Source: Cryobacterium sinapicolor
Lineage (GTDB): Bacteria; Actinomycetota; Actinomycetes; Actinomycetales; Microbacteriaceae
Direction of reading: 5' to 3'
DNA: 64,000 nucleotides
NCBI RefSeq assembly: GCF_004403465.1
Contig: NZ_SOGQ01000011.1
Span: 1 to 64,000 of the forward strand
This document shows, piece by piece, positions 2,261 to 33,507 of the stretch. The notes beneath the pieces were generated by a model. The model was not told where the DNA came from. It saw only the letters and a program-made list of their open reading frames with translations, and made no database searches. Position 1 is the stretch's first letter, and every line of letters begins with the position of its first letter. A program made the translations under genes and the position numbers.

Positions 2261-2342
2261 CCAATTCGACGGAGATTTTGGCTTGAAACTGCCCTTTCGC
2301 CGATTTCAAGGCCGATCCGGGCAGAATCACCGTCGAATTCGT
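2261..2342. repeat. Dispersed inverted-end element, copy 1
   Basis: An approximately 82 bp element with inverted ends: the left arm (2263-2279) begins AATTCGACGGAGATTTT, and the right arm (2323-2340) is its reverse complement with two mismatches. Similarity to the other copies (17725-17806 and 33426-33507) includes the interior and a short flank ending TTCGGG. It lies between convergent genes (1986-2249 and 2428-2733), like the other two. Bidirectional terminator, REP-like or MITE-like origins are all possible. Confidence 0.85.
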
Positions 2343-2427
2343 TCGGGCCGTGGGGCGGAGCACCACGCGGGCGGGACCCGCGACTCGCTGAGCGGCCGGG
2401 TCGAGCCTGCGCTGACCTGGCCGACCG

Positions 2428-2733
2428 TTAGACGAAGACCAGCACCAGGCGCACCACGACAGCCAGAATCGCCGCGCCCGACAGCGCCAGCGAGACGAGC
2501 ACCAGACCGCGCCCCGTCGCGCCGGCCGGGATCACGCTGAAGGCCCGCAGCGAGAGCGAGAGCCCGATCAGGGCGACGAACAGCGCGGGAAACGGCAGCA
2601 CCACCGCGAGCACGACGCTGACGACCGACACCCAGAAACCCGGCACCCGGCCGGGCGACTTCGACCAGTCCAGGTTGGGCGCCCCGAGACCCAGCAGGTT
2701 GTTGCCCTCCATGTTCGCGCGCGGGTCGGTCAT
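2428..2733 (-). CDS. Small integral membrane protein of unknown function
   Basis: A 101-residue protein on the minus strand. AAGGAG lies about six bases before the ATG and supports the start. The N-terminal 35 residues are polar (MTDPRANMEGNNLLGLG), followed by two hydrophobic helices (about 35-62 and 72-100) separated by a short RAFSVIPAGATGRG turn. This layout resembles DUF4190-like small membrane proteins, but no family motif is diagnostic. It is divergent from jetA, with a 117 bp gap that would hold both promoters. Confidence 0.7.
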   Translation of the reverse strand: MTDPRANMEGNNLLGLGAPNLDWSKSPGRVPGFWVSVVSVVLAVVLPFPALFVALIGLSLSLRAFSVIPAGATGRGLVLVSLALSGAAILAVVVRLVLVFV

Positions 2734-2850
2734 GTGGTGCTCCTTCGGCTTGTCCTGACAGTCTCACATGTGCCGTTCGCGCCTGCCCGCGTGTCTGCTT
2801 GCGCGCGGGGGGCGGTTACCCTTGAGAAGGCCCGGAAAGGAACTTCTACA

Positions 2851-4353
2851 ATGAGCGAACTTGCGGGCGAACTGGCGCGGGTGCGCGAAGCCTTCGACAA
2901 ACCGACCCTGCGCCTGCTGGATCGCAAGTGGGCGCCGTTCGTGCTCTTCGTGTTCAAGTCGTCCTTCAGCCGCGACCGCCGCAGCGTGCAGGCCGGTCTG
3001 CTGCACACCCAGGTTGACGCCTACCTCGCCGACCTGCGCTCGGTCGGCAGCGATGTGCCGGGCAAGACCGGCCGGGCCCTGTGCGTGCAGTGGATGAACG
3101 ACCAGTGGCTCTACCGCGAAACGGGGGAGGGAGCCGAGGAACACTACTCGCTCACCTCACACGCGCTCGAGGCGCTGCTCCTGGTTGAGAGCCTGTCCCG
3201 CGATCGGGCTCTGATCAGCGAGTCCCGTCTCACCACGATCGTCGACACGGTGCGCCACCGCGCCACGCAGGCCAACCCGGACCGGGAGGAGCGAATCCGT
3301 CGCCTCGACCAGGAGATCGCCGAGAAGACGGCTGAGCGTGAGCGTCTCGCGGCGGGCGGCGAGATCGCACCCGTCTCCAACGCGCAGATGCATGAGGGCT
3401 ACGCCAACCTGATCGATCTGATCAGCCAGCTGCCCAGCGACTTCAAACGCGTCGAGGAATCCGTCGCCGCCATGCACCGGCAGATCGTCAACGATTTCCG
3501 CGGCGAGGAGCGCCCGATCAGCGAGGTCCTCGACGAATACCTCTCCAAAACGGATGCCCTGATGACCTCGACCCCGGAAGGGCGCGCCTTCGAGGGGGCT
3601 TTCACGCTGTTGCGGAACGACGACCTGCTCCAGGAGCTCAAGGACGATCTGGAGACGATCCTGCTGCATCCGTTCGCCCTCGAACTCAGCGCCATCGACC
3701 GCCGCAGCTTCATGGGCACCGTGCGCCTGATCCGCAAGGGCATCGACGACGTGCTCACCCAGCGCAACGGTCTCACCACCACGCTGCGCGAGCACATCGT
3801 CAACCACGACGTGGTCAAGGACCGCGAACTCGAACGCCTGCTGCGCGAGATCAACAAGGAACTCGCCACCTGGATGCAGACCGCCGGGCCCCGCTCCATG
3901 GTCACCGCCGAACTCATGCCGGGAACCCTCGACGCCCCGCATCTCCGGGAACGCTTCTACGACCCGGGCGCGCACCGCCCGCCACCCGAGCTGCAGGATG
4001 TCTCCGACGACGCCCCGGCGCCGCCGAGCCTCGACGAGATGCGCCAGCAGGGCGGCCCGCTGCTGGGGGAGTTGCGCGACGCGATCGTGACGGCCTTCAG
4101 CCAGGGCGAGGCCGCATCCGTCGGCGACGCGTTCAACGACCTCGACGCCACCCTGCGCCGCCCGGTCGAGATCCTGGGGATGCTGCAGATCGCCACCCAG
4201 ATCGACGCGGTCAGCCGGGCGCAAACGCTCGAGCGGTTCGAAACCGTTCGTCCGGACGGCTCCACCCGCAGCTTCGAGGTGCCCCGAATCATGCTCAACG
4301 ACGACGAAACCGCGGCGCTGTCCGCCCTGAACTACGGAACCGACAATGACTGA
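2851..4353 (+). CDS. jetA: DUF3375 protein, JetA/MksF-type kleisin subunit of an SMC complex
   Basis: A 500-residue protein of the DUF3375 family. This is the kleisin-like JetA of Wadjet (MksF/EptA elsewhere), which bridges the two SMC heads. The ATG at 2851 follows GGAAAGG at 2834-2840 and gives the conserved beginning [15 protein letters not shown]; an upstream in-frame start at 2734 has no such support. The middle is rich in charged helices, consistent with a kleisin coiled-coil linker. It overlaps jetB by 8 bases, so translation is probably coupled. Wadjet complexes recognise and cut circular plasmid DNA, whereas MksBEF without a nuclease acts as a condensin. Which applies here depends on the missing JetD. 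Confidence 0.88.
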
Positions 4354-5050
4354 CGAGCCCACCGCTGACGACCTCACGGATACCGACTCACCCAGCTTTT
4401 CCCTGTTCGAGGGCGACGAGGGCGGGCTCACCGTGGAGCAGCGCCGCACCCTGGTGCTGCTGCTGAAGCACCGCTACATCTCCGCCGCGCTGCAGCCGTC
4501 CGAGTGGCAGACGCTGCTGCGCTCACAGGGTCTGCTCAAGTCGCGCCTCAACGACATGTTCCTCGACCTGCACGTCGACCTGCACTACGAGGTGGCGTTC
4601 AAACGGCAGGCGGTCGCCGAGGGCGGCGACCGGTTCCCCACCCTGCCGCACGACGTGTCCTACACCCGGGAGGAGACCATCCTGCTTGTGCTGCTGCGGC
4701 AGCGATTCCGCAGCGAGCGCGCGAATGGCCACGACATCGTCATCGTGGACCGCGACAACCTGGTCGAGAACGTCGGCCATTTCCGGCCCGAACACGCCAC
4801 CGATCGCTGGGGCGACGCCCGCAAGGCCACGGCCGCGGTCGACAGCCTCGCCAAGGCGCGCGTGCTGCTGAAGACCAGCGACCCGGACCGGTTCCGCATC
4901 TCCGCCGTGATCGAGGTGCTGCTGCCGGTCGAACGGCTGAGCGAACTCCTGGAGTGGCTGGTCACCCAGAACGCCGATCCCGATCCGGAACCCACCGATC
5001 TTGACGATCTGCCTCTCCTGTCCGAGGCCATGCCGGAGGCCCTCTCATGA
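4346..5050 (+). CDS. jetB: DUF4194 protein, JetB/MksE-type subunit
   Basis: A 234-residue DUF4194 protein, the KITE-like subunit that binds the kleisin in Wadjet and MksBEF complexes. Family features visible are the [16 protein letters not shown] segment near the N-terminus, winged-helix-like central parts and a C-terminal acidic tail. It overlaps jetA by 8 bases and jetC by 4 (ATGA), indicating a translationally coupled three-gene operon. Length is normal for the family. No catalytic residues are expected. Confidence 0.88.
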
Positions 5051-8000
5051 CCGATTCCCCGCTGTTCTTCGTCGACGGCCTCACCGAGGGCACCACCCAG
5101 TGGCGCGCCGAGTCCTTCCAGATGGTGAACTGGGGCGGCTTCCAGGGCCACCACGAGGTTGCCTTCGCGCCGAGCGCCACCCTGGTGTCCGGGGCATCCG
5201 GAACCGGCAAGAGCAGCCTGCTGGACGCGTACCTCGCCCTGATGATGCCCTCGGACACCCCGTTCAACGGCGCCTCCAACGACGCGGGCTCCGGGCGGGC
5301 GCGCAGTGCCGACCAGCGCAGCCTGATGACCTACCTCAAGGGCAAGACCGACGCCAACCGGGAGGCCGGCACGGGGGAGCTGCAGGACCAGGTGCTCCGC
5401 GGAGCCCACGAGTCCACCTGGGGTGCCGTGTCGATGACGTTCATCGACGACAACCAGCGCCGTTTCACCGTGCTGCGGGCCTACTTCGTGCCGCGTGGCG
5501 GCACCCGGTTCGCCGACATCACCATGAAGATGGCCACGATCGACGGTTATCTCGATCTGCGCGACCTGGCCGAGGTGACCGAGTCCCGGTTCGACAAGCG
5601 CGCCCTCAAATCCCGGTTCCCCGAACTGGATGTCTTCGACACCTATGCGGCGTTCGCCCAGACGTTGTACACCCGCCTGGGCATCGGCGCCAACGGCGAG
5701 GGCGGCAAGGCTCTCCGGCTGCTGGCCCGCATCCAGGCCGGCCAGCAGGTCAAGACGGTCGACGGGCTCTACAAGTCGATGGTGCTCGAGGAACCGGCCA
5801 CCTACGCGGCCGCCGACAAGGCCGTCGCCCACTTCGAAGACCTCGAGCGGTCCTACGGCGCCATGGTCGCCGAGGCGCAGAAGGTCAAGGTGCTGGAACG
5901 CCTGCCTGACCTGCATCGCGACTACGAGGCGGCCACCGACAAGGCCGACCTGATCGACACCTTCGGCGTGCACCGCTCCGGCGACACCCCGTTCGTGCTC
6001 TGGCAGCTCCGCACGGAGCAGGGCCTGCTCGAGGGGGCTGCCGACGCCAACCGGGTGGCGCGCCGCGATACCCGGCTTCTCTCCACGACGGCCCGGGATG
6101 CCGCGACCGAAGTGAAAGCGCGGGTCGCCGACCTGCAGCGCCAGCAGCGCGACAACGGCGGCGACGTGCTCGTCAGCCTGCAGAACGAGCTCGGCCAGCT
6201 CACCGACAAACGCGACGACATCGCCGCCGAGCGGGCGAAGTTCGACGAGCGCATCCGGCCACTCGGTCTGTCCATCGACTCCGCCGACGACTTCGACCTG
6301 GCCCGCGTCGCCGCCGACGGGTTCCTGGCTGGTTTCCCTGCCGCCGAGGCCGACCTCGAGAACACGCGCACCGCGCTGCAGCGCACCGCCTACCCGGTCG
6401 AGGAGAGCCTCCGCACCCTGAAGCAGGAGCGCCAGTTCCTGTCCGGGCGGGCGAGCCTGGTTCCGCAGCATCTGCATAGCGCGCGCCTGATGATCGCCGA
6501 GGCGACGGGCATCCCCGCCGAGGAGCTGCCCTTCCTCGCCGAACTGATCGACCTCGCCCCCGGCGAAGAGGCGTGGCGGCAGGCGGCCGAGGTCACCCTG
6601 GCCTCCGTTGTGCGCGTCATGCTCGTCGACGAGACCCGACTGCGCGCGCTGAGCCTGGCCATCGACCCGCTCCGCATCCCCGTGCGCATCCACTTCGAGG
6701 GAGTGCCGCTGCGGGCCCACCGGCAGAGCGCCGGCGACCCGCGCTTCGTGTCCGGAAAACTCGTCTTCAAGGAGTCACCCTTCAGTGGCTGGGTGCAGGA
6801 CCGGGTGCAGGCCGCCAACCTCGACGCGGAGTGCGTCGCCACGGCGGCCGACCTCGTCGGGCACGGTCCCAGGGTCACTCCGAGCGGGCAGACCCGCAAC
6901 GGCTCCCGCGGCGCGCACGGCTGGAACAGCGACCAGAAGTCGATCATCGGCTTCTCCAGCCGCACCCGACTGCACGACATCGACGAGGAACTCGCCCGAC
7001 TGCGGGTGGAGGCCGACAACCTGGCCCGCGAAGCCTCCGGGCACGGTTCGAGCCTCGCCGGCCTCCGGGCCCGCCGGGCCGCGCACCAGTTCGTCGTCGA
7101 CGTGGCCTGGCCGGCCATCGACGTGCAGGCCGCGGATGCCCGCATCACCGACAAGCAGGCCGAGCGTGAGCGTGTGCTCGCCGACAGTGACGTGCTGCGC
7201 GCGCTGAAGGACGAGGAGGAGAGGCTGGCCGCCGAGCTGGAGACCGCCCAGAAGCAGAAGCACGCCACCGAGGTGGCACTGCAGGACCTGGTGTCCGAAC
7301 AGGCCCGCATCGTGGACCGGCAGGATGCCGTGAGCAGCCGCCTCGACCGCATCGATGGTGACCCGGAGGCAGCGCCGTCGCTGTCGGAGGAGCACGCCAC
7401 CCACCTCGACGCCCAGTTCGCGGCCGTTGCCGACCGGCACGATCTCGACGCGTTCGACGGGGCCGTCAGGCGCCTGCGTGAGCGCCTCACCGAGCAGTCC
7501 AGCCAGGACCGCGACAGCGCCGCCGGTGCCCGCAACACCCTGGTCGGCATCTTCGAGACCTTCCAGAGCCGCTGGCCCGACCCGAATATCGGCGTCTCGC
7601 TGGATTCCTACCCGAGCTACCGGGACATCCTCGACGCCGTGTACACGCTCGGCCTGCACGAGCGGCGCCAGGAGTGGAAGCGCCGGCTGGCGCTCTGGAG
7701 CGGCCAGGATCTGGTTCCCTTGGTCGGGGCCTTCACCAGCTCCATCGAGGAGATCGAAGACCGGCTGCGCCCCATCAACGAGATCCTCACCACGCTGCCG
7801 TTCGGGGCCGGGCGCGACCGCCTCAAGATCGCGTTGCGCCGCCTCCACCGCGACGACGCCACCGCGTTCCGCAAAGAACTCAAGGTGCTCTCTTCCGGTT
7901 CCACGGATGCCTTCACCGACGAGGAGACCGAGGCCAGGTTCACCCGGTTGCAGGCGTTCATGAACCTGATCCGCCGGTCCGCCGATGGACCTCGCCAGGA

Positions 8001-8427
8001 ATCCCAGCGCGACCTGCTGCTCGATGTGCGCCGGCATGTTGAGATCACCGCCGTGCGCACCACCCCGGAAGGCCTGGAGGTCAGCACCTACTCGTCGCTC
8101 GGCGGCAAGAGCGGTGGCGAGTCCCAGGAGCTGGTGGCGTTCGTCGTGGGAGCCGCCCTGCGGTTCCAGCTCGGCGACGAGAGCCGCACCCGCCCACGCT
8201 TCGCGCCGGTCTTCCTCGACGAGGGTTTCGTGAAATCGGACTCCGAGTTCGCAGGACGGGCTGTGGCCGCCTGGAAGGGGCTGGGCTTCCAGCTCATCAT
8301 CGGTTCCCCGCTCGACAAGGTCACCGCCCTCGAACCGCACATGGAGCTGGTGCTCTCGATGACCAAGAACAACGCCACCGGGTTCTCCTACATCACGCCG
8401 CTCTCGTCGCCGGTGTTCTCGTCGTAA
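5047..8427 (+). CDS. jetC: SMC-like ATPase, JetC/MksB-type
   Basis: A 1126-residue SMC/MukB-like ATPase. The Walker A motif GASGTGKSS is at residues 49-57, the ABC signature GGKSGGES begins near residue 1019, and Walker B VFLDEGF carries D1058 and E1059. Between the heads lie long charged, Ala/Arg/Glu-rich coiled coils with a central hinge-like region around residues 500-600. Length matches JetC of Wadjet. It is the last gene of the operon: no DUF3322/DUF2220 (JetD) gene follows within the next kilobases on either strand. About 140 bases after its stop the next gene has its own strong Shine-Dalgarno. Confidence 0.9.
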
Positions 8428-8570
8428 AATCGGCAGCACCTTGGCTGAATCCCCGCAGTGCCTTGGCTTAAGTTCCGCGGGGCCTTGCGCGACGGGAAGA
8501 CCGGGCGAAAACTGGGAATGTTCCACCAACACCTTGTGTACCAACCAATGTGGTCCTAAGGAGGTCCGCA

Positions 8571-9020
8571 ATGACTAGTTCCCTCAACCGGATGTTCGGC
8601 ATTGTCCTCGGAGCTCTGTTCCTCCTCCTCGGCCTGCTCGGCTTCACTGCGACAGGCAACGTCGGCTTCGTGGCGACGGAGGGTGGTTTGCTCCTGGGCA
8701 CCTTCGAGGTCAATCCGCTTCTCAACGTGGTCTACATGCTCCTCGGAGCGGCCCTGTTGATCGGCGGCGTGGCCAGTGTCGCAGCGGCGAAAATGGTCAA
8801 TGGCACCGTCGGCGGCATCCTGCTGCTGATGGGAATCATCGGCTTCTTCGTCGTCGGCACCGAGTTCAACTACCTCGCTCTGAACACGGCCGACCATGTC
8901 CTCAACCTGGTGACCGGCGCCGCACTGCTCGGTGTCGCGCTGGCGGCTGAGCGGCACGTGACCCCGGCAGTGACGACCGCGGGGCAGAAGTCGAGCTTCT
9001 ACACCAGCGACACCGAGTAA
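8571..9020 (+). CDS. DUF4383-type four-helix membrane protein
   Basis: A 149-residue protein with four predicted membrane helices (about residues 7-27, 48-68, 76-96 and 104-125), matching the DUF4383 layout common in actinobacteria. The start at 8571 is fixed by TAAGGAGGT at 8558-8565; a further upstream in-frame start gives a charged extension without support. The family has no established role. A hairpin terminator follows directly, so it is probably monocistronic or the end of a transcript starting in the 143 bp gap after jetC. Confidence 0.85.
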   Translation: MTSSLNRMFGIVLGALFLLLGLLGFTATGNVGFVATEGGLLLGTFEVNPLLNVVYMLLGAALLIGGVASVAAAKMVNGTVGGILLLMGIIGFFVVGTEFNYLALNTADHVLNLVTGAALLGVALAAERHVTPAVTTAGQKSSFYTSDTE

Positions 9021-9029
9021 CAACCCGGC

Positions 9030-9066
9030 ATCAGGGCTCTCCCTCGACGGCGGGAGCCCTGATTTC
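9030..9066 (+). terminator. Rho-independent terminator
   Basis: ATCAGGGCTC (9030-9039) pairs perfectly with GAGCCCTGAT (9054-9063), followed by TTT. It lies ten bases after the DUF4383 stop. Confidence 0.8.
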
Positions 9067-9094
9067 GGCGTGCTCGCAGAGTAAGATTTTTCGC

Positions 9095-9652
9095 GTGGCC
9101 GCAATCAAGGTGATCGTCGACGAGGGGCTCAGAATCGCGCTTTCCGCCGTTCGGATGGCGGTCAAGAACGACATCATCGTGGGTGCTCTCGGCGATCACG
9201 CTGACTACGATCCGGAACGCTACGCGGCCGCCGCCCGGCATGAATTGCACCTCCTCACCCGGCAGAACGAGCAGTACGCCCTCCGGGTCAAGGACCTGCG
9301 CAAGGAACTCACCCGATCGCGGTGGACCTCCGACCTCACGGAAGACCAACACCACGACATCGCGCAGCTCAAATTGCGCCGACGCGTGCACGAGAAGCTC
9401 GCCGACGCCCTCGAGGCCGTGGCCGCCGACGACGAGAAGGTCGCGCGTCTGGTGCGGCGGGCCCAGCGAGCCGCCAGCGACGAGGTCAGTGACGCGGTGT
9501 CGTCACGCCTGATCAGGCTGAATATCGACTGGCATGATCCCGACTACGAGGCTCGGCGCGCCGCCCGCACCGAGGTGTTCCTGCACATCGACTTCGCGCT
9601 GCTGAAGCTCAAGCACGACGCCGCGACCGACCCGTCCGCCAGCGACTACTGA
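9095..9652 (+). CDS. Uncharacterised charged, helical protein
   Basis: A 185-residue protein starting with GTG. It has an N-terminal segment that could be amphipathic, then long stretches rich in Arg, Glu, Lys and Ala (for example the NEQYALRVKDLRKEL region) compatible with coiled coil. There are no transmembrane helices, cysteines or recognisable catalytic motifs. I do not recognise a family. Its third-position GC is high throughout, so it is a real gene. It converges on the small minus-strand gene ending at 9673. Confidence 0.7.
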   Translation: MAAIKVIVDEGLRIALSAVRMAVKNDIIVGALGDHADYDPERYAAAARHELHLLTRQNEQYALRVKDLRKELTRSRWTSDLTEDQHHDIAQLKLRRRVHEKLADALEAVAADDEKVARLVRRAQRAASDEVSDAVSSRLIRLNIDWHDPDYEARRAARTEVFLHIDFALLKLKHDAATDPSASDY

Positions 9653-9672
9653 GAGCGACGATCGATCCTGAC

Positions 9673-9840
9673 TCAGCTGCGGGAGAAAAGCCGCGCGAAA
9701 AAGCCGGGGGTGGGGGCGTCGTTCTCGTGTCCGCGGCACCGATCGGAACTCCGAACGCCGCGCATCACCTGGTCGACGTGCTGACCGCACCCGGCCCAGG
9801 TCGTTTTTCCACACTTCTTGCAGGTGACTTGACGGCACAT
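9673..9840 (-). CDS. Small cysteine-rich, probably zinc-binding protein
   Basis: A 55-residue protein. The start at 9840 (MCRQVTCKKC) is chosen because GAAAGGG lies about nine bases upstream; the longer frame to 9915 lacks support. Candidate metal ligands are C7 and C10 of the CKKC knuckle, C18 and H21 of AGCGQH, plus C35 and H38 later. The VTCKKCGKTTWAGCGQHVD block is found in a widespread group of tiny uncharacterised proteins. The tail is basic and hydrophobic (GFFARLFSRS). Function unknown. Confidence 0.7.
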   Translation of the reverse strand: MCRQVTCKKCGKTTWAGCGQHVDQVMRGVRSSDRCRGHENDAPTPGFFARLFSRS

Positions 9841-9926
9841 CCGCTGATCCCTTTCGTTGAACTCGTCTGCCCAACATACCCCATGGGGTATCGGTTTTGC
9901 TGTATCGCCTCGCAACCGGCCCGGCG

Positions 9927-10137
9927 TCAGAAGCTACTCCGGCGCGCCCGCCAGGCCCGCCACGCACCGGTCGACCAGAGCGCCCACGCCGCCAGCAGCG
10001 GCTGGAAGAGCAGCCGGATGCCGCGGGACAGGTCCGAATCCAGGCCGAACGAATCCGTCGCCGTCACGAACTGGGAGATGTTGCCGGGGAATCGAGGTGC
10101 GGTTCGTGCGGGTGCCGGTGGCAGCGACTGCGGTCAT
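9927..10137 (-). pseudogene. Small gene with an apparent frameshift
   Basis: An ATG at 10137 overlaps the stop of the upstream gene as ATGA, the usual coupling in this genome. The first 15 codons have GC-rich third positions, but the frame then loses that bias. From about 10092 onward the bias moves to the neighbouring frame, which reads NISQFVTATDSFGLDSDLSR and then a hydrophobic stretch to a TGA at 9929-9927. One extra base near 10092 would explain both. The restored protein would be about 69 residues, with one hydrophobic helix. This is either a recent frameshift or a sequencing error. No family recognised. Confidence 0.6.
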
Positions 10138-10442
10138 TCCCCGACTTTAGCCGCGATCTCGGCGTCGGTCCGGGCGTTGAAGATGCCCCACATGATGTGC
10201 GTCGGGCCACTGCCGTCGCTGCCGGGCGCCGAAGCCCGGCTGATCCAGCGCGCGGCGGCGGCGGTGGCGCCGAGCGCCGTCAGTGACGGGGCGATCCGGG
10301 TCTTGCGAATCTTGCCGGCCATCACGCCGCCATCCGGCGCGAGCCTCCAGCCGCGGCTCGAGGCGAGCACCTGCCCGACTTCCTCGTCGGTGAGCCACCG
10401 GGAGAAGCTCCGGCTGGGTGGGTCGATCGCGGTGAGCTTCAT
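10134..10442 (-). CDS. Conserved hypothetical small protein
   Basis: A 102-residue basic protein whose ATG (10442-10440) overlaps the stop of the PfkB gene as ATGA. It has no signal peptide. A central small-residue helix (SLTALGATAAAARWIS) may be membrane-associated or packed, and the C-terminus reads TDAEIAAKVGE. I do not recognise a family. Its position between the sugar kinase and the frameshifted small gene suggests a three-gene transcript. Confidence 0.65.
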   Translation of the reverse strand: MKLTAIDPPSRSFSRWLTDEEVGQVLASSRGWRLAPDGGVMAGKIRKTRIAPSLTALGATAAAARWISRASAPGSDGSGPTHIMWGIFNARTDAEIAAKVGE

Positions 10443-11398
10443 GCGAGCGCCACCAGCTCGGCCTCGAGCCGTTCGACATCCGCCCGGTGACAGAGTTCCG
10501 TGGCCGGTGTCATCGCGGTGGCGCTGCCGGCGGCGACGGCGGCCCGGAAGGCCCGGTCTACCGGGTGTCCCTGCGCGATCCGCAGAACGAAGGCACCGAG
10601 GAAGCTGTCTCCGGCCCCGACGGTGCTTTGCACCGTGACCGGCGGCACGCCCAGACGAATGATCCCGCTCTTCGTGGCGAGCACGGCTCCCGCTCCGCCG
10701 AGCGTCAGTGCGACGACCTCCGCCGACCCTCGGGCGACGAGTTCGACGGCCGCGTCGATCTTGCTCTGTTCGGTGTCCAGGCTCGCGCCGACGAGTTCGC
10801 CCAACTCGCGCCCACTCGGTTTGACCAGGTAGACGCCCTCGTCGAGCGCTGCGGCCAGTGCCGGACCGGACGTGTCCACGATGCAGCGGGCGTCGCGCTC
10901 GTGCGCCAGACGCGTGACCCGGGCGTAGAAGTCGTCCGGCACTCCCGGCGGCAGGCTGCCGCTGGCGACCACATAGCCGCCCACCGGAATGGACTCTCCC
11001 ACGACAGCGAGGCAGGCCCGCCACTCGGTCTCGCTCAGCTCGGGTCCCTCCAGCACGAAGCGGAATTGTTTGCCGGTGCCCGTCTCGTCGACGGTGAAGC
11101 TCTCGCGGGTGCTGCCCTGGATCGGCACAGCCAGGGTCGGGATGCGTTCGGCTTCGATCAACCGGCGGAAGGACTCGCCGGTCGGGCCGCCCGCGGTGTA
11201 CACGGCCAGGGCCTGCCCGCCGAGCCGTTGCACCACCCGGGCCACGTTCACACCGCCGCCGCCCGGGTCGAGGCGTGACCGGCCGCAGCGCATCTTGTGC
11301 TCGCTGATCACCTGCTCGGTCGACGTGCTGATGTCGAGAGCGGGGTTCACGGTCAGGGTGAGAATCGGCCGCAGCACGGCGGCTCGGGGGGAATCCAT
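10439..11398 (-). CDS. PfkB-family sugar kinase (1-phosphofructokinase-like)
   Basis: A 319-residue ribokinase-fold kinase. Signature one (substrate side) is the DPGGGGVNVARV segment near residues 45-55. Signature two is GAGDSFLGAF at 261-270, with D264 as the likely catalytic base. The GGGGVNVAR form and the TLTVNPALD beginning match the 1-phosphofructokinase/tagatose-6-phosphate/6-phosphofructokinase-2 subgroup, so the substrate is probably a phosphorylated hexose. I chose the ATG at 11398; an in-frame extension to 11650 does not look like protein of this family. The two downstream genes overlap it by four bases each. Confidence 0.85.
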   Translation of the reverse strand: MDSPRAAVLRPILTLTVNPALDISTSTEQVISEHKMRCGRSRLDPGGGGVNVARVVQRLGGQALAVYTAGGPTGESFRRLIEAERIPTLAVPIQGSTRESFTVDETGTGKQFRFVLEGPELSETEWRACLAVVGESIPVGGYVVASGSLPPGVPDDFYARVTRLAHERDARCIVDTSGPALAAALDEGVYLVKPSGRELGELVGASLDTEQSKIDAAVELVARGSAEVVALTLGGAGAVLATKSGIIRLGVPPVTVQSTVGAGDSFLGAFVLRIAQGHPVDRAFRAAVAAGSATAMTPATELCHRADVERLEAELVALA

Positions 11399-11494
11399 GG
11401 TCTCAGCGTAGAAGAATTCCCCGCACGCCTCGTGCTGGTGCGGCCTTCGGCCGATAATCGAAGCATTCGCCATTCGATCGAGAGAGGTTTCACC

Positions 11495-11911
11495 ATGACA
11501 ACCCAACTCAATCCCTACCTGGGGTTCAGGGACAACACCCGGGAAGCGATGGAGTTCTACCGTTCGGTGTTCGGCGGTGAGCTGACGATGAGCACCTTCG
11601 CCGAATTCGAGGCCAGCGACGATCCGGCCGAGCAGGACAAGATCATGCACGCCATGCTGACCACCGAGGACGGGCTGGTGCTGATGGGCGCCGATACTCC
11701 GAACCGGATGGAGTACCGACCGGGCACGAACTATTCCGTGTCGCTGAGCGGTGACGACGAACCGGCGCTGCGCGGCTACTGGGACGGGCTCGCGGCCGGG
11801 GGAACCGTCATCATGCCGCTCGCGCCGTCACCGTGGATGGACAGCTTCGGCATGTGCGTCGACAAATTCGGCGTGAGCTGGATGGTGAACATCGCTGCCC
11901 CCTCCGCTTAG
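11495..11911 (+). CDS. VOC-family protein (PhnB/glyoxalase-like)
   Basis: A 138-residue protein of the vicinal oxygen chelate fold, PhnB-like branch. It begins with LNPYLGFRDNTREAMEFYR and ends with the typical WMDSFGMCVDKFGVSWMVN block. The ATG at 11495 follows AGAGAGG at 11481-11487. Such proteins bind metals or small ligands, but the precise reaction cannot be read from sequence; many lack the full metal triad. Divergent from the PfkB gene. Confidence 0.85.
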   Translation: MTTQLNPYLGFRDNTREAMEFYRSVFGGELTMSTFAEFEASDDPAEQDKIMHAMLTTEDGLVLMGADTPNRMEYRPGTNYSVSLSGDDEPALRGYWDGLAAGGTVIMPLAPSPWMDSFGMCVDKFGVSWMVNIAAPSA

Positions 11912-11922
11912 GCCCGCGTCAG

Positions 11923-12918
11923 ATGGCCATCCGGCTGACCCGTCTCGCGGTGAACGACGTCGCCTATATGCGGGAGACCGTGTTCTTCGACGGCGAGCGT
12001 CTTCGCGAGCGGGTCAGCCGGTTCTGGATTCTGCTCGTGCTCGCGTCGGTCATCGCCGCGGCCGGTGTCGCCTCCGATTCCACGGCCACCGTGATCGGCG
12101 CGATGATCATCGCGCCACTGATGGTCCCGATCCAAGGCACCATGCTGGCCACCGTACTCGGCGACCCGAAGAATCTCAGCCGGTCGATGGGCCTGATGCT
12201 GGCCGGTGCGGCCGCGGCCGTCGGCATCGCCGTGCTGGTCGGGCTGCTCCTGCCGGTCGACGTCGTGGCCCAGAACAACTCCCAGGTCGCCGCGCGGGTG
12301 CACCCCCGGCTGATCGACCTGCTCGCGGCCCTCGGCACCGGGGTGGTCGGCTCGATCGCACTCGTCCGCCGGGACATCGCCGACGCCCTGCCCGGGGTGG
12401 CGATCGCGATCTCCCTGGTGCCGCCCCTGTCGGTGGTGGGGTTCACGCTCGAGGCCGGGGCGCTCCTGCAGTCGCTGGGCGCGCTGCTCCTGTTCCTGAC
12501 GAATGTCGCCGCCATCCTCGGCACCGGCATCGTGGTGATGGCGCTCTACGGCGTCAACCGGCTGGGTGAGACAGCACCAACGCCCCGGGCCCGCCGTGCG
12601 CACCGGCGCAACGGCATTCTCGTCACCGCAGCCATGGCCGTCACCATCCTCGTGCCTCTGACGCTGTCGAGCGTGAACGTGAGCCGGTCGAGCGCGTTCG
12701 AGGCATCCGTGCAGGCCGTGGCGGAGCGGTGGGCGACGGATGCCGGCTGGATGCTGACGGGCATCACGACCGCCGCCGACAACACGGTCATCGTGAGCCT
12801 TCAGGGTGCCCTCCCACTACCGGACACGACTCTGCTGGAGGAGAGGCTCCGCGCCGCCGAGCTCGACCCGAATCCCGTGCGGATCGTGCTGACCCCGACC
12901 TACACCGTCGACTACTGA
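11923..12918 (+). CDS. DUF389 integral membrane protein
   Basis: A 331-residue membrane protein. The hallmark DUF389 region follows an N-terminal amphipathic stretch and reads SDSTATVIGAMIIAPLMVP. Five to six membrane helices extend to about residue 245, then comes a soluble C-terminal domain of about 85 residues. The ATG at 11923 is 11 bases after the VOC stop, so the two genes may be cotranscribed. No transport substrate is established for this family. Confidence 0.85.
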   Translation: MAIRLTRLAVNDVAYMRETVFFDGERLRERVSRFWILLVLASVIAAAGVASDSTATVIGAMIIAPLMVPIQGTMLATVLGDPKNLSRSMGLMLAGAAAAVGIAVLVGLLLPVDVVAQNNSQVAARVHPRLIDLLAALGTGVVGSIALVRRDIADALPGVAIAISLVPPLSVVGFTLEAGALLQSLGALLLFLTNVAAILGTGIVVMALYGVNRLGETAPTPRARRAHRRNGILVTAAMAVTILVPLTLSSVNVSRSSAFEASVQAVAERWATDAGWMLTGITTAADNTVIVSLQGALPLPDTTLLEERLRAAELDPNPVRIVLTPTYTVDY

Positions 12919-12950
12919 ACGCTGCCCCGGCCCGCCGCTACGATGATGTT

Positions 12951-13682: not shown

Positions 13683-13737
13683 CGCGGGGGCAAGGCAGGC
13701 GCGGGTCCGGAACCGGTCCCGGACCTAGAGTGGTTCC

Positions 13738-15885: not shown

Positions 15886-15977
15886 CCTGTGGCCTGCACG
15901 AAATGCAACCTGTTCCCGCCACACCTGCAACGGGTCGTATTCCGTTCCGGGCATTCGAACCGAGGAAGATGGATCGG

Positions 15978-17681
15978 ATGACCACCTCCCCGAGCACCAC
16001 CACCTTCCGAGGCGCGCGCGACCACCTCCTCCAGCTGCGCGACGATCACCCGCGCGCCGCGGCCGAGTTCGTGTGGCCGGATGTGGGCGCGAACTTCAAC
16101 TGGGCCGTCGACTGGTTCGACGTCGTGGCCGCTGGCAACGACAAGACCGCCCTGTGGATCGTGGAGGAGGACGGCCGCGAACTGAAGGTGACCTTCAGTG
16201 AGATGTCGGCGCGCTCCGATCAGGTGGCCACCTGGCTGAGCCGGTGCGGCGTCGGGCATGGCGACCACGTGATGCTGATGCTGGGCAACCAGGTCGAACT
16301 CTGGGAACTGATGCTCGCCATCATGAAGGTGGGCGCGGTCATCCTGCCCACGTCCACGGTGCTCGCGTCCGGCGACCTGGCCGACCGGGTCCATCGCGGC
16401 GGCGTGCAGCACGTGATCGCCAACGCCGGCGACGCGGCCAAGTTCGACGGGGTGCCCGGCGACTTCTCCCGCATCTGCGTTGGTGCGGCCACCCCCGGCT
16501 GGGCCGATTACGCGGATGCCGCGCTCGTCACGGCCGAGAAGCCCGCCGTTGTCGTGTCCTCCGACGACGCGTCCCTGATCTACTTCACCTCGGGCACCAC
16601 CAGCAAACCCAAGATGGTGGTGCACACCCAGACGTCCTACCCGGTGGGGCACCTCACCACGATGTACTGGATCGGGCTCCGCCCGGGCGACGTGCACCTG
16701 GCAATCAGCTCGCCCGGCTGGGGCAAGCACGCCTGGAGCAGCTTCTTCGCCCCGTGGATCGCCGAGGCCACCGTCTTCGTCTACAACTACGCCCGATTCG
16801 ACCCGATCGCCCTCGCCCAGCAGCTGCACCGTGCGAAGGTGACCACCTTCTGCGCCCCACCGACCGTGTGGCGCATGCTGATCCAGTCCGACGTCGGCGC
16901 CAGGCCCGTGGGCCTGCGCGAGATCCTCTCGGCCGGCGAGCCGCTCAACCCGGAGGTCATCCACCAGATCCAGCGGTCCTGGGGACTCACCATCCGGGAC
17001 GGCTACGGCCAGACCGAGACCACGGCGATCGTGGGCAACGCCCCCGGTTCCACCCTCCTGGCCGGGTCGATGGGGCTACCCCTGCCGGGCGTCGCGATCA
17101 CCCTGCTCGACCCGATCACGGGGGAGGAGAGCGACGAGGGTGAGATCTGCCTCGACCTGTCCCGCACCGCGGTGAACCTGATGGCCGGATACCACGGCGA
17201 TCCCGAACGCACCAGGGAGGCCGTGCGCGACGGCTACTTCCACACCGGCGACGTCGCCCATCGCGACTTCGGGGGCTACATCACCTTCATCGGCCGGACC
17301 GACGACATCTTCAAGTCCTCCGACTACAAGGTCTCCCCATTCGAGGTCGAGAGCGTGCTGCTGGAGCACCCGGCCGTCGCCGAGGCGGCCGTCGTGCCCG
17401 CGCCCGACGACACTCGGCTGAACATCGCCAAGGCCTACATCGCGCTCGCCGCGGGCTGGGAATCCAACGGTGAGACGGCGCTCTCCGTGCTGCGCCACGC
17501 CCGCACCGGCCTGCCACCGTACATGCGGGTGCGGCGGGTCGAGTTTTACGAGCTGCCCAAGACCAGTTCCGGCAAGATCCGCCGGGTCGAACTGCGCATG
17601 CGAGAGGATGCCGCGGCCGCCCGGCGCGAGACCCTGCCCGATGAGTGGCGCGACGACCAGTTCCCCGAGCTCAAGCGCTGA
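15978..17681 (+). CDS. AMP-binding acyl-CoA synthetase
   Basis: A 567-residue acyl-adenylate-forming enzyme of the medium-chain acyl-CoA synthetase type. The P-loop-like motif YFTSGTTSKPKM, the DGYGQTETT block, the TGD hinge region and the C-terminal KTSSGKIRR lysine motif are all present. It converts a carboxylic acid, ATP and CoA to acyl-CoA. I chose the second ATG (15978) because GAGGAAG at 15962-15968 is correctly spaced for it, while the first ATG at 15969 is directly against the SD. It converges on the maltokinase gene with repeat copy 2 between. Confidence 0.9.
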   Translation: MTTSPSTTTFRGARDHLLQLRDDHPRAAAEFVWPDVGANFNWAVDWFDVVAAGNDKTALWIVEEDGRELKVTFSEMSARSDQVATWLSRCGVGHGDHVMLMLGNQVELWELMLAIMKVGAVILPTSTVLASGDLADRVHRGGVQHVIANAGDAAKFDGVPGDFSRICVGAATPGWADYADAALVTAEKPAVVVSSDDASLIYFTSGTTSKPKMVVHTQTSYPVGHLTTMYWIGLRPGDVHLAISSPGWGKHAWSSFFAPWIAEATVFVYNYARFDPIALAQQLHRAKVTTFCAPPTVWRMLIQSDVGARPVGLREILSAGEPLNPEVIHQIQRSWGLTIRDGYGQTETTAIVGNAPGSTLLAGSMGLPLPGVAITLLDPITGEESDEGEICLDLSRTAVNLMAGYHGDPERTREAVRDGYFHTGDVAHRDFGGYITFIGRTDDIFKSSDYKVSPFEVESVLLEHPAVAEAAVVPAPDDTRLNIAKAYIALAAGWESNGETALSVLRHARTGLPPYMRVRRVEFYELPKTSSGKIRRVELRMREDAAAARRETLPDEWRDDQFPELKR

Positions 17682-17724
17682 CCGGCCGTCGAAACGGCTC
17701 CGATGAGCAGTGGACCCGTCCCGA

Positions 17725-17806
17725 ACGAATTCGACGGAGATTTTGCCCAAAACGCCTCTGAAACCCTGAAAAAGGCTGTTTGACACGAGAATCTCCGTCG
17801 AATTAG
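17725..17806. repeat. Dispersed inverted-end element, copy 2 (opposite orientation)
   Basis: An approximately 82 bp element with GAATTCGACGGAGATTTT at 17727-17744 and the matching arm GAGAATCTCCGTCGAATT at 17787-17804. When reversed, its interior aligns without gaps to copies 1 and 3 and the flank ends TTCGGG as theirs do, so this copy is inverted. It lies between convergent genes, 44 bases after the acyl-CoA synthetase stop. Confidence 0.85.
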
Positions 17807-17827
17807 GACGACCCCGGCCGATCGGAA

Positions 17828-19255
17828 TCAGGGTAGGCCGGCGGAGACCTCCAGAGCCAAACCGCGGATGGCGGCGAGCGGGATCGGCAGCCAGGACGGC
17901 CGGTTGCGGGTCTCGTAGACGGCCTCGTACAGGGCCTTGTCCAGCTCGAACGCGTCGAGAAGGGGCTCCTGACCGGCCAGGCTCTGGCCGGAGCGCGCGG
18001 CGTAGCCGTCGAGGAACGCCTGCCGGCACGCCGCGGCCCATGCCTCCACGGGCGCGGTCCGGTGGTCGGGCGAGGACTGCTCCACCGTGCCGGCCACGTA
18101 GGAGAAGGAGCGCAGCATGCCGGCGATGTCTTTCAGCGGCACATCCGGCTGGGTTCTGTCGAGAAGAGGGCGCAGCGGTTCGCCCTCGAAATCCACCAGG
18201 ACCCAGCCGCGGCCGGGAACCTCGAGCGCCTGGCCGAGGTGGAAATCACCGTGGATGCGCTGCAACCGGGGCCAGTGCGCCGTCTCCGCGCGCGCGAAGA
18301 CCGCCTCGACGGCGCTATGGTAGCCGGTCAGGGCCGGCACCTCGGCGGCGACGCTGCGGTAACGCTCGCGCATCCGCTGCAGCTCGGCGCCGATGACCGC
18401 GGGGGTGGCGTCGTGGGTGGGCATCACGGCGGCCAGGTCCGCGTGCACGGCGGCCGTCGCCTGGCCCAGCGCCCGCGCCTGCTCGCTGAAGTCCGTCCCG
18501 GCCGCGGCCGACGCCAGGGCGGCCCGCCAGGCGTCCGGGGCATCCGGCAGGAACTCCTGAGCGAAGACGAGGTGGCCGGTCAGGATGGTGCCGGGCCGCT
18601 CCGGGGCGGTCCACTCGCCGACCACGCAGCCGACGGGTTCCGGCACGTAGTGCGAGCCGGCCCGGGCCAGGGCCGACTGCACGGACACGTCCGGATTCTC
18701 GCCGGGGTGCAGCATCCGGAACACCTTGCAAATAACGGGGCGGGCCGGGTGCCCGGCGGCGTCCACGCAGTCCAGGATGATCGAGGTGTTCGACTGCTCA
18801 CCGCGGAGCACGCGGCTGGTGAGGACCCGGGCCGGCCGCTCCGCGGGATCGGCGCCCGGCCGGAGCTCGCCGCGGGCCCGCGCGCCGATGTCGCCGGGCG
18901 TGGGCGAGAAGGCCTGGCCCAGGATGAAACCGAGCAGTGCGCGGGCATAGGCCGGATCGTCGGTACCGTCGTAGACCGCGCTGCCGTCGGCGAGGGTGAC
19001 GATGAGGGCCTGCTCGCCTCCGGGCAGGGGAGTGGCCCGGTGGGTCAGGGGCACCTGGTAGAGGGTGCGGCCCGGGGCTGCGTCATCGAGGGCGAGCTCG
19101 GTGCGGATGTCCACCCCGACCTCCTCGCTCGGCAGCACCCAGCTTCCGATGCTGACGAGTCGCGGCACACGACCCTTGTCGGCGAACCAGCGTTGCGTCG
19201 CCACCCAGCGGTTGAGGTAGTCCGGGAGTGGGATTGCACGACCGTTATCAGTCAT
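17828..19255 (-). CDS. Maltokinase-like aminoglycoside-phosphotransferase-fold kinase
   Basis: A 475-residue protein resembling actinobacterial maltokinase (Mak/Pep2), which makes maltose-1-phosphate for the GlgE glycogen pathway. It begins with the N-terminal cap motif WVATQRWFADKGR. The kinase core follows, with the catalytic loop IHGDFHLGQAL and the metal-binding VLVDFEGEP block. The C-terminal part contains the LDGYAARSGQ segment typical of the family. Its ATG overlaps the end of the GNAT gene by 8 bases. malQ nearby supports a role in alpha-glucan metabolism. Confidence 0.85.
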   Translation of the reverse strand: MTDNGRAIPLPDYLNRWVATQRWFADKGRVPRLVSIGSWVLPSEEVGVDIRTELALDDAAPGRTLYQVPLTHRATPLPGGEQALIVTLADGSAVYDGTDDPAYARALLGFILGQAFSPTPGDIGARARGELRPGADPAERPARVLTSRVLRGEQSNTSIILDCVDAAGHPARPVICKVFRMLHPGENPDVSVQSALARAGSHYVPEPVGCVVGEWTAPERPGTILTGHLVFAQEFLPDAPDAWRAALASAAAGTDFSEQARALGQATAAVHADLAAVMPTHDATPAVIGAELQRMRERYRSVAAEVPALTGYHSAVEAVFARAETAHWPRLQRIHGDFHLGQALEVPGRGWVLVDFEGEPLRPLLDRTQPDVPLKDIAGMLRSFSYVAGTVEQSSPDHRTAPVEAWAAACRQAFLDGYAARSGQSLAGQEPLLDAFELDKALYEAVYETRNRPSWLPIPLAAIRGLALEVSAGLP

Positions 19256-19784: not shown

Positions 19785-19809
19785 GGGATGACGATAATCC
19801 AGGTGCCGC

Positions 19810-25117: not shown

Positions 25118-25152
25118 ACAGTAATCACCGCTCGACCCACCCGGATCAGACG

Positions 25153-25186
25153 AGGCGTGGCATCTCTACAGATGCCACGCCTTTTC
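25153..25186 (+). terminator. Rho-independent terminator of pflBA
   Basis: AGGCGTGGCATCT (25153-25165) and AGATGCCACGCCT (25170-25182) form a perfect 13 bp stem with a CTAC loop, followed by a T run. Confidence 0.92.
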
Positions 25187-25296
25187 TGCGCAGTAAAGCA
25201 GAGGATGCCTCCTGCCAACCTGTGAAAGCGCTTACAAGACAACTAAACTCGGGTACATACAAAGGCATGCATCATGTCACAATGAGAGGCAACACA

Positions 25297-25764: not shown

Positions 25765-25792
25765 CATCTGATCCCCGGAGCGTTGCGCTCCG

Positions 25793-25825
25793 AGAGCCCG
25801 GCAGCATTCGCTGCCGGGCTCTTCT
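25793..25825 (+). terminator. Rho-independent terminator
   Basis: AGAGCCCGGCAGC (25793-25805) and GCTGCCGGGCTCT (25810-25822) form a perfect 13 bp stem with an ATTC loop and a pyrimidine-rich tail. A smaller GGAGCG/CGCTCC hairpin precedes it. Confidence 0.9.
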
Positions 25826-25913
25826 ACTTTGCGCAACCCCCTATCCCCTGAGTCCTCCTCAGGTTTGCATGCCATGGGACCCGATCGGGTTCGTGGACGC
25901 GTGGGGTGGTGCA

Positions 25914-28142: not shown

Positions 28143-28154
28143 CTATTCCGATGA

Positions 28155-28679: not shown

Positions 28680-28716
28680 GACAGGTATTTTAGGCGCGAG
28701 GCAGGCCAGGCGCGCA

Positions 28717-32106: not shown

Positions 32107-32145
32107 GTGTGTACTCCTCTGGCAGGCAGGTTGACGGGTGATGGA

Positions 32146-32161
32146 TCGAACAAATGTTCGA
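32146..32161. promoter_or_regulatory. LexA (SOS) box
   Basis: TCGAACAAATGTTCGA is a perfect match to the actinobacterial and Bacillus-type SOS box (GAAC-N4-GTTC core). It is 40 bases upstream of the dnaE2 start and about 120 upstream of the divergent transporter gene. Confidence 0.92.
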
Positions 32162-32281
32162 TGTAGGGAGTGTACGTCAGTCGGCCGACACGCGCCAGTG
32201 GCAGTCCGGTCAGACGGTCCGGCCGGGCAGCCTGACTAGGCTAGGTGGCTCAGTCGCCGTTAGCCTCGTTTGGAGATCCCC

Positions 32282-33421
32282 ATGACCACGCCCACTTCGT
32301 CCTGGACGGACTACCTCGGCCGGGCCGCCGTCCGCTCCGGCCAGGCCCTGCTGGTCCTCGCCCTGCTGGTGGTGGCCGTCTACGGGATCACGCAGCTCAA
32401 GCTGGTCTTCATCCCGCTCCTGCTCGCCCTGATCGTGGCGTCGGCGCTGCGCCCCGTGATGAGATTCCTGCTGGCCCGCGGTGCGAACGAGTCCCTCGCC
32501 GCGGCGATCACCCTGATCTCGAGCGTCGCGGTCTTCGGCGGCATCGTCACCCTCGTGGTGTTCGGCATCCGTGGTGAGTGGGACACCCTGTTCACCTCGG
32601 CCAACGACGGCCTGGACACCCTGCAGGAGCTTCTCACCAGCGGTACGCTGCCGATCGATTCCGCCCAGATCGATTCGGTGCGCGAGTCGGTCATCGACTT
32701 CGCGACCAGCAGCCAGTTCGGGTCTGGAGCTTTGGCTGGGGTCTCCGTCGCGGCCGAGATCGTGGCCGGCGTGGTGCTCGGCCTCGTCGTGCTCTTCTAC
32801 TTCCTCAAGGACGGCCCCCACATCTGGAGCTTCCTCATCCAGCCTCTCGCCGGCAAGCGCCACGCACGGGCCGTGCGCATCGGCCTGAGCAGCGTCGACG
32901 TGTTCGGCAACTACGTGCGGGGCACGGCAATCGTCGCGTTCGTCGACGCCCTGTTCATCGGAATCGGGCTGTGGATCCTGCAGGTGCCGCTGGCACTGCC
33001 GCTCGCCGTCATCGTCTTCGTGGGCGCGTTCATCCCCATCGTCGGGGCGACGGCGGCCGGCATCCTGGCCGCATTGGTGGCCCTGGTCACGAACGACCTG
33101 ACCACCGCCATCATCGTGGTGGCGATCGTGGTCGCGGTCAACCAGCTCGAGGGCAACTTCCTGTCCCCGGTGGTGCTCGGCAAGTCGCTGCGCCTGCACG
33201 GTCTCGTGATCCTGCTGGCCCTGACGGCCGGCACGATCCTGGGCGGCATCGTCGGCGCGATCATCTCGGTGCCGATCGCCGCCGTCGGCTGGGCCGTCAT
33301 CAAAGCCTGGAACGCGCCCACCCTGCCGTCCACCCCGCCGCCCGTTCCGGAGCAGCCGGCCGTGCCGGTGGAATCCGTGCCACCCGGCCGGTCGATCGGG
33401 GCGTCCGGTGCCGCGGCCTAG
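32282..33421 (+). CDS. AI-2E/PerM-family permease
   Basis: A 379-residue membrane protein. Two N-terminal helices are followed by a soluble segment (about residues 90-140), then further helices including the family blocks VVLGLVVLFYFLKDGPHIW and LALPLAVIVFVGAFIPIVGA. The C-terminal tail is Pro-rich and cytoplasmic. The ATG at 32282 is preferred over 32270 because GGAG at 32272-32275 fits it. The family includes proposed autoinducer exporters and Na+/H+ antiporters, so the substrate is unknown. Confidence 0.88.
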   Translation: MTTPTSSWTDYLGRAAVRSGQALLVLALLVVAVYGITQLKLVFIPLLLALIVASALRPVMRFLLARGANESLAAAITLISSVAVFGGIVTLVVFGIRGEWDTLFTSANDGLDTLQELLTSGTLPIDSAQIDSVRESVIDFATSSQFGSGALAGVSVAAEIVAGVVLGLVVLFYFLKDGPHIWSFLIQPLAGKRHARAVRIGLSSVDVFGNYVRGTAIVAFVDALFIGIGLWILQVPLALPLAVIVFVGAFIPIVGATAAGILAALVALVTNDLTTAIIVVAIVVAVNQLEGNFLSPVVLGKSLRLHGLVILLALTAGTILGGIVGAIISVPIAAVGWAVIKAWNAPTLPSTPPPVPEQPAVPVESVPPGRSIGASGAAA

Positions 33422-33425
33422 CTAA

Positions 33426-33507
33426 CCAATTCGACGGAGATTTTCGTTCACAACCGCTTTTTCGGCGTTTTCTAGGCTGTTTCGGGCAAAATCTCCGTCG
33501 AATTCGT
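33426..33507. repeat. Dispersed inverted-end element, copy 3
   Basis: An approximately 82 bp element with perfect 17 bp inverted ends, AATTCGACGGAGATTTT (33428-33444) and AAAATCTCCGTCGAATT (33488-33504). It matches copy 1 over its whole length (same size, about 70 percent interior identity by eye). It starts five bases after the permease stop and overlaps the end of the minus-strand hydrolase gene, supplying its stop codon and last residues. Confidence 0.88.

What the first reader, a model, noticed from the sequence alone, without database searches (positions are those of the whole stretch)
2261..33507. Three copies of an 82-bp inverted-end element, each between convergent genes
Copies at 2261-2342, 17725-17806 (inverted) and 33426-33507 share 17 bp inverted ends (AATTCGACGGAGATTTT and its complement), the same length and an alignable interior. 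The shared sequence continues into one flank (TTCGGG). All three lie between 3' ends of convergent gene pairs, which is not expected of random insertions. This fits a bidirectional terminator family, a REP-like element or a MITE captured at gene ends. No family name is known to me.
Basis: seen in the sequence. Interest (0 to 1): 0.7.

Follow-up and report, generated by a model that had tools for sequence, protein, structure and literature searches.

The report
Bent paired-site DNA repeats near genes
Cold-loving Cryobacterium genomes carry up to about 120 copies of a small DNA element, mostly just behind genes, whose two mirror-image ends, exact length and evenly spaced A/T runs persist while the rest of its letters change, which suggests a protein-bound bent-DNA site of a kind not yet described.

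Summary
The three copies belong to a family of about 118 copies in this 3.53 Mb genome, up to 120 in relatives. Record titles name Cryobacterium and Glaciibacter superstes. Each copy is a pair of inverted half-sites, usually exactly 77 bp end to end, around an interior whose letters vary but whose A/T runs recur every 10 bp.

Copies sit mostly downstream of genes (64 convergent, 64 tandem, 9 divergent of 137 placed), so 'always convergent' fails. In 12 syntenic pairs at 9 sites the arms differ at 10 of 360 positions, the interior at about 39%, and both copies are 77 bp: selection on single copies. Variable arm positions do not covary, so an RNA hairpin alone does not explain it. Copies appear to spread and vanish, once with a scar at a syntenic site.

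Best reading: a duplex-DNA paired site looped by an unknown protein at gene ends, REPIN-like in anatomy but without the REPIN transposase (0 of 57 genomes). Protein, loop and function are inferred.

The parts
2258..2347 (+). Copy 1: element with outer half-site flanks; 77-bp core at 2263-2339
2263..2279 (+). Copy 1 left arm
2323..2339 (-). Copy 1 right arm (one mismatch to the family)
17720..17808 (-). Copy 2: element with flanks; core at 17728-17804. Relatives G028, G009, G010, G007 and G030 lack it at the syntenic site
17728..17744 (+). Copy 2 arm next to the CGTTCGGG-type flank
17788..17804 (-). Copy 2 other arm
33423..33512 (+). Copy 3: element with flanks; core at 33428-33504. Syntenic copy in G028 (and one in G030 syntenic to that of G028); scar in G009 at the site of the G028 copy
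33428..33444 (+). Copy 3 left arm
33488..33504 (-). Copy 3 right arm
1986..2249 (+). Gene left of copy 1 (no Pfam match)
2428..2733 (-). Gene right of copy 1, convergent (no Pfam match)
15978..17681 (+). AMP-binding enzyme gene left of copy 2
17828..19138 (-). Gene with maltokinase N-terminal cap and APH domains right of copy 2, convergent
32282..33421 (+). AI-2E family transporter gene left of copy 3
33472..34581 (-). Enoyl-CoA hydratase/isomerase family gene right of copy 3; its stop lies inside the element

Best explanation
Each copy is a duplex-DNA site with two inverted half-sites (about CCCKAACSAATTCGACGGAGATTYT in this lineage). They are held about 6 helical turns apart by DNA in which A or T runs recur every 10 bp, which should bend it in a fixed direction. 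An unidentified protein recognises both half-sites and needs the intervening DNA to curve into roughly one tight loop or wrap; this explains fixed length, phased A/T runs and otherwise free letters. Shown: anatomy, near-constant length, phasing, purifying selection on single copies, gene-end placement, and lineage-specific change of the arms with geometry kept. Indicated: dispersal and clean loss. Inferred: the protein, the bend and loop, and the role. The likeliest role is a boundary at transcript ends, acting in both directions (a protein roadblock that stops read-through, or a sink for the supercoils that meet there). Copies spread rarely by an unknown MITE-like route and are lost by clean deletion.
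For: A/T content follows a 10-bp period in phase across copies (power 1.51 vs 0.24 in shuffles, coherence 0.97). Length is 77 bp in 136 of 149 copies. A second lineage (G012, G022) has other arms (GTACCATTCGACGGWGTT) but the same phased runs (these 47 were picked at fixed length; with spacing free by several bases 36 of 38 copies in six stretches have the 77-bp span, two 6-mismatch hits inside genes left out). 12 syntenic pairs at 9 sites: arms differ 10/360, interior identity 0.61, both 77 bp; arms vs interior p = 8e-42. In those pairs A/T-run columns keep A/T when they change (18 A<->T vs 34 mixed; flanks 30 vs 452; p = 3e-8). Variable arm positions do not covary: B 11/67 paired 0.53 vs 0.56 expected; A 16/62 0.56 vs 0.52. 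64 syntenic comparisons: 23 intact (0-1 mismatch in 24 arm positions), 29 absent, 12 flagged degenerate, of which 10 have 7-8 mismatches in gaps over 500 bp (chance level) and 2 (one site) are an intact-arm 86-bp copy with an insert. Placement.
Against: No binding protein, footprint or transcript data. The family is patchy (26 of 57 genus genomes show none even with 3 mismatches), so the role is dispensable; G009 and G010 have only 19 and 16 copies. Per run, only 44-60% of lineage-A copies (67-92 of 154) have A/T at all three central bases. Run columns are A/T-rich to begin with, which alone raises the share of A<->T changes over the flanks; and phasing may partly be shared ancestry. The mean RNA fold of the interior is stronger than in column shuffles (-12.23 vs -11.18, sd 0.21) and slightly stronger than in block shuffles (-11.86, sd 0.21), and local inverted repeats are somewhat in excess (1.68 vs 1.33 per copy, sd 0.11), so a weak hairpin effect is not excluded. 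Gene-end placement is also what avoidance of promoters and genes would give, and REPs show it too.
Confidence: 0.45

Rival explanations
1. Selfish MITE. The arms are terminal repeats for an unidentified transposase; exact length and phased A/T runs are needed because two ends only 77 bp apart must be brought together. The host has no use for the copies.
For: Similar interiors (identity up to 0.88) at places without flank homology, in several pairs with likeness ending near AAC..GTT; patchy presence and empty syntenic sites; a scar at a syntenic site in G009 and two like sequences in G028 (the G028 ones not checked against relatives); two independent in-frame sites inside genes.
Against: Arms and length conserved at syntenic sites while the interior diverged, which neutral dead copies would not show; no decaying class in 64 syntenic comparisons; no variable target-site duplication; no parent found.
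Confidence: 0.27
2. RNA hairpin terminator or mRNA stabiliser that works in both directions: the arms pair in the transcript.
For: Arms are long and complementary; placement behind genes; RNA fold of the core is strong (mean -38 kcal/mol) and local self-pairing slightly in excess.
Against: Variable arm positions do not covary and the 0/78 pair is mismatched in most lineage-A copies; no U-run after the arm; a 10-bp A/T period and a fixed 77-bp length have no place in an RNA hairpin with a 43-nt loop.
Confidence: 0.15
3. Strong topoisomerase (gyrase) or nucleoid-protein wrapping site placed where convergent transcription piles up supercoils.
For: 10-bp phased A/T runs and enrichment between convergent genes.
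Against: Gyrase is universal but the element was found only in the window's genus and Glaciibacter superstes, and not in many species of the genus; long invariant inverted arms are not a known gyrase requirement (recalled, not tested).
Confidence: 0.08
4. DNA uptake sequence: copies are kept intact because competent cells take up DNA that carries them.
For: Dispersed, conserved motif near gene ends with helically spaced A/T segments resembles the Haemophilus signal (recalled; papers seen only as listings).
Against: Only about 33 copies per Mb here, far longer motif than known uptake signals (recalled); competence not tested.
Confidence: 0.04

Closest known systems
REPINs (Pseudomonas fluorescens SBW25; PMC3116915, passages read)
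   Same: Two highly conserved inverted ends (16 bp there), a less conserved spacer at a common distance (71 bp between starts in GI), extragenic, many copies, excision seen.
   Different: REPIN ends contain REP palindromes and go with a RAYT tyrosine transposase; none in 57 genus genomes here. Here the arms vary without pairing and the spacer has 10-bp phased A/T runs (not tested in REPINs).
REP repeats, GTAG and CGTC superfamilies (PMC3733652, abstract, passages and section 15 read)
   Same: Located behind genes, between convergent and unidirectional ORFs, sometimes supplying the stop codon; some inside ORFs; REPs are targets for IS insertion (PMC1525189, abstract).
   Different: REPs are 20-40 bp palindromes with an unpaired GTAG or CGTC tag. 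Here CGTC lies within the arm. 'Actinobacteria' has no occurrence in that main text.
MITEs such as ERIC/RUP-type small mobile sequences (recalled; PMC2229807 seen in a listing)
   Same: Short, non-coding, inverted ends, dispersed.
   Different: No variable target-site duplication, no parent transposase found, and copies under purifying selection after divergence.
DNA uptake signals of Haemophilus (recalled)
   Same: Conserved core with A/T segments a helical turn apart.
   Different: Single short core, far more copies; no paired arms at fixed distance.

Membership tests
REPIN/REP with RAYT | RAYT (Y1_Tnp, PF01797) encoded in the genome | tested here: not met
   0 of 57 genus genomes; search rang in 5 of 14 control genomes
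REPIN/REP with RAYT | Two inverted conserved ends with a less conserved spacer at fixed spacing | tested here: met
   77 bp in 136 of 149 copies; interior pairwise identity 0.40
REPIN/REP with RAYT | Each end is itself a hairpin with an unpaired GTAG or CGTC tag | tested here: not met
   By reading the consensus, not by folding: no looped hairpin within an arm, CGTC inside the arm. A few copies (L059, L214, L215) have a loop-less 14-16 bp palindrome at each end
MITE | Terminal inverted repeats, short, many dispersed copies | tested here: met
MITE | Target-site duplication | tested here: inconclusive
   No variable one: the best-scoring offsets (2-10 bp) match in one copy each. The constant AATT at both ends could be a fixed-target duplication; the G009 scar would fit
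MITE | Autonomous parent with the same ends | tested here: inconclusive
   None seen around 21 arms without a partner in 1.37 Mb of loci: 15 are G012/G022-type copies whose other arm differs, 4 join an IS-like repeat, 1 plain half copy (L177), 1 weak match (L251); whole genomes not scanned
Intrinsic terminator | GC-rich hairpin followed by a U-run | tested here: not met
   No terminator call at copies 1 and 2 in 1-20000 (copy 3 not scanned); flank is CGTTCGGG
Intrinsic terminator | Transcript 3' ends at the copies | not testable with these tools
   No RNA data
Known RNA family | Match to an Rfam model | tested here: not met
   No gathering-level match in the window
DNA uptake sequence | Biased uptake by competent cells | not testable with these tools
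   No assay

The most novel reading that the evidence does not exclude
A new class of bacterial gene-end element: a protein-organised one-turn DNA loop whose selected properties are two half-sites, their exact distance and the helical phase of A/T runs, with the arm code shifting between lineages in step with an unknown cognate protein, spread like a mobile element but kept copy by copy by selection.
Probability: 0.4. Interest if true: 0.85.

Novelty: new variant of a known kind. Interest (0 to 1): 0.64.

Why it matters
Small palindromic repeats behind genes have been known for decades, yet what keeps them is debated. Here selection can be read directly: at the same site in different species the arms, the length and the A/T phase persist while other letters turn over. 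That points to DNA shape and a pair of protein contacts, and it gives a clean system (no, few or about 120 copies in related species) to test whether such elements end transcripts, absorb supercoils or are merely mobile. Two arm codes with one geometry suggest a co-evolving binding protein that can be fished out.

Tried and rejected
RAYT-driven REPIN: rejected, no Y1_Tnp. Variable target-site duplication: none. Hairpin covariation in arms or interior: none. Integron-like cassette array: clusters in G012/G022 raised this, but the genes between copies that were scanned are ordinary chromosomal ones (RecR, ThiC, an amino acid kinase with ACT domains, Mqo) and copies sit, often in pairs, in the gaps. 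Parent transposon: the sequence joined to broken arms is an IS-like repeat (starts GGCTCTCCTG; ISL3-like by recall, not typed) that also occurs in genomes without the element, so not taken as the parent. Genome-wide empty target palindromes: absent, so AAC..GTT is taken as part of the element; the 1-2 hits in each of 8 genomes other than G028 are taken as chance (about 0.2 expected per genome by my estimate). Guessed synteny of own contig C56 with G007:C26 gave no syntenic pair. Relatives in other genera: 9 of the 14 genomes with a match are outside the genus, with 1-2 matches each that lack the phased runs by eye; taken as chance although the backward control found none; not tested further. 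Paper searches for an earlier description (listings, plus passages of the papers named above) showed none; this does not cover most subscription journals.

Weak points of method: home-made gene caller; loci were chosen for intact arms, so only searches are free of that bias, and one search took only 77-78 bp copies with up to 3 arm mismatches as starting points; the 12 pairs come from 9 sites and are not independent; the likeness of dispersed interiors was not given a formal test; the G010 length comparison is post hoc.
Full report
Observation. The three copies are real. Their core is 77 bp: AATTCGACGGAGATT, 47 variable bases, AATCTCCGTCGAATT (one mismatch in copy 1). The shared sequence goes on outward as (G/T)AAC(C/G) on one side and (C/G)GTT(C/A)GGG on the other in most copies, so each half-site is about 25 bp. 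No Rfam family matches in the window.

Family size and range. With exact 15-bp arms this genome holds 85 copies and 16 of 57 genomes of the genus have at least one. With up to 3 mismatches in 20 arm bases the genome holds 118, and 31 of 57 have at least one; 21 of these have 4 or more; the backward-read control gave 3 matches in all 57. The richest are G030 (120), G028 (119), G000 (118), G007 (84). In the family, 2 of 299 genomes matched with 12-bp arms, both of this genus. With the 8-bp core, 14 of 398 matched: 5 of this genus, 9 others with 1-2 matches each that look like chance by eye, although the backward control found none.

Anatomy. Of 149 distinct copies in loci fetched by then, 136 are 77 bp, 9 are 78, 2 are 76, one 79, one 84. 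A/T content peaks near positions 15, 24, 34, 44, 54 and 63, symmetric about the centre; G+C-rich stretches lie between. Fourier power at 10-10.25 bp is 1.5 against 0.24 in shuffles, with phase coherence 0.97. In lineage A, 67 to 92 of 154 copies have A/T at all three central bases of a given run; those triplets are mostly AAA, TTT or ATT and rarely contain TpA. Copies of G012 and G022 have other arms, GTACCATTCGACGG(A/T)GTT, sharing the TTCGACGG core, and the same phased runs. The 47 copies profiled were picked at the 77-bp length; with the spacing free by several bases, 36 of 38 copies in six stretches have it (two 6-mismatch hits inside genes left out).

Duplex rather than hairpin. Where arm positions vary, the two sides vary independently: 47 B copies pair at 11/67 in 0.53 (0.56 expected), 154 A copies at 16/62 in 0.56 (0.52 expected), and 0/78 is mismatched in most A copies. 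Interior dyad pairs show no excess. Against this, folding energy of the interior is lower than in column-shuffled copies (-12.23 vs -11.18, sd 0.21), near that of 10-column block shuffles (-11.86, sd 0.21), and local inverted repeats are somewhat in excess (1.68 vs 1.33, sd 0.11); I read this as weak local self-complementarity.

Selection on single copies. In syntenic blocks of six genomes I asked what lies at the place where another genome has a copy, without asking for intact arms there. Of 64 comparisons, 23 were intact (0-1 mismatch of 24), 29 absent, 12 flagged degenerate. Ten of those 12 have 7-8 mismatches in gaps over 500 bp, where such matches arise by chance; two are one site with intact arms and an insert (86 bp). 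The 23 intact comparisons are 12 pairs at 9 sites. Arms differ at 10 of 360 positions, interiors average 0.61 identity (range 0.33-0.84), and both copies are 77 bp in every pair. At the A/T-run columns, changes keep A/T more often than in the flanks (18:34 against 30:452, p = 3e-8), and G/C columns keep G/C (29:37 against 174:452, p = 0.01); part of this follows from the columns' composition. In G010, which has few copies, 5 of 15 are not 77 bp, against 2 of 51 listed in the own genome (p = 0.005, post hoc; lengths read, tested), as if the constraint were relaxed there.

Placement. Of 137 placed copies, 64 are convergent, 64 tandem, 9 divergent; in tandem gaps 49 of 64 lie nearer the upstream stop. 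Four of 149 were flagged inside an ORF. Two of them (L055, methyltransferase; L057, xylulose kinase by its best PDB match) have coding sequence on both sides, and a third case, L212, lies in the same kinase in genome G008. All three are 78 bp and in the same frame. The other two flagged (L035, L060) lie towards ORF ends, where coding scores collapse after the element.

Movement and loss. Pairs with up to 0.88 identical interiors occur at places without flank homology; in several the likeness ends near AAC..GTT, in a subfamily it runs on some 27 bases. I read this as copies spreading without their neighbours; no formal test was made. At the window's second copy five relatives have only -2 to 61 bp between the aligned flanks, where this genome has 147 to 192. 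At the site where G028 and G030 hold a copy (syntenic to the third copy), G009 has GAACGAATTGGTT, as if everything between the two AATT had been removed. Two like sequences are in G028; they were not checked against relatives. Slippage between the AATT repeats would give the same scar as enzymatic excision. There is no variable target-site duplication.

Interpretation. Selection on arms, distance and A/T phase, with no pairing constraint, is what a protein that grips both arms across bent DNA would impose. A 77-85 bp arc is about one tight turn, which would set the two half-sites side by side (inference). The gene-end placement suggests a boundary role in both directions; I cannot separate a transcription roadblock from a supercoil sink. 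A selfish element whose synapsis needs the same geometry is the main rival; it explains dispersal better and conservation of single copies worse.

Relation to what is known. The closest in anatomy are REPINs (PMC3116915): two invariant inverted 16-mers, 71 bp apart in GI, less conserved spacer, excision seen (passages). They go with RAYTs, absent here. The placement equals that of REPs (PMC3733652, section 15), so placement alone is not novel. IS insertion into the elements also has a REP parallel (PMC1525189, abstract). New here are the helical phasing, the selection read at single copies and the two arm codes. Nine paper searches listed no description of this family.

Noticed in passing
L255, L274, L275, L062, L130, L087, L115, L271: An IS-like repeat starting GGCTC(T/C)CCTG (ISL3-like by recall) joins element arms at these 8 places, in 5 of them right after ATCTC; of the 24 loci examined, 4 show this and the rest lie elsewhere, many in genomes without the element.
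   Followed up: partly
G012:C40, C31, C39, C60; G022:C25, C34 (loci L239-L246): In these genomes copies often come in pairs or triples 110-260 bp apart in neighbouring gene gaps, mostly with differing interiors; clustered regionally, reason unknown.
   Followed up: partly
L055:1316, L057:3235, L212:1001: Element copies inside genes are 78 bp, in frame, encoding about (E/Q)FDGD...KSPSN; L057 and L212 share the same kinase linker in two genomes.
   Followed up: yes
G028 left flanks, e.g. L041, L042, L026, L031: A subfamily shares about 27 further bases upstream of the left arm (CACAGGCGGAGCGCC..GTGTC), so some copies may have moved as a longer unit.
   Followed up: partly
L059:6065, L214, L215: In some copies the outer flank makes each end a perfect palindrome (about CGTCGAATTCGACG), a further arm variant.
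   Followed up: no
G009, G010 versus G000, G028: Close relatives differ six- to seven-fold in copy number (19 and 16 versus 118 and 119), which makes them a natural test pair.
   Followed up: no
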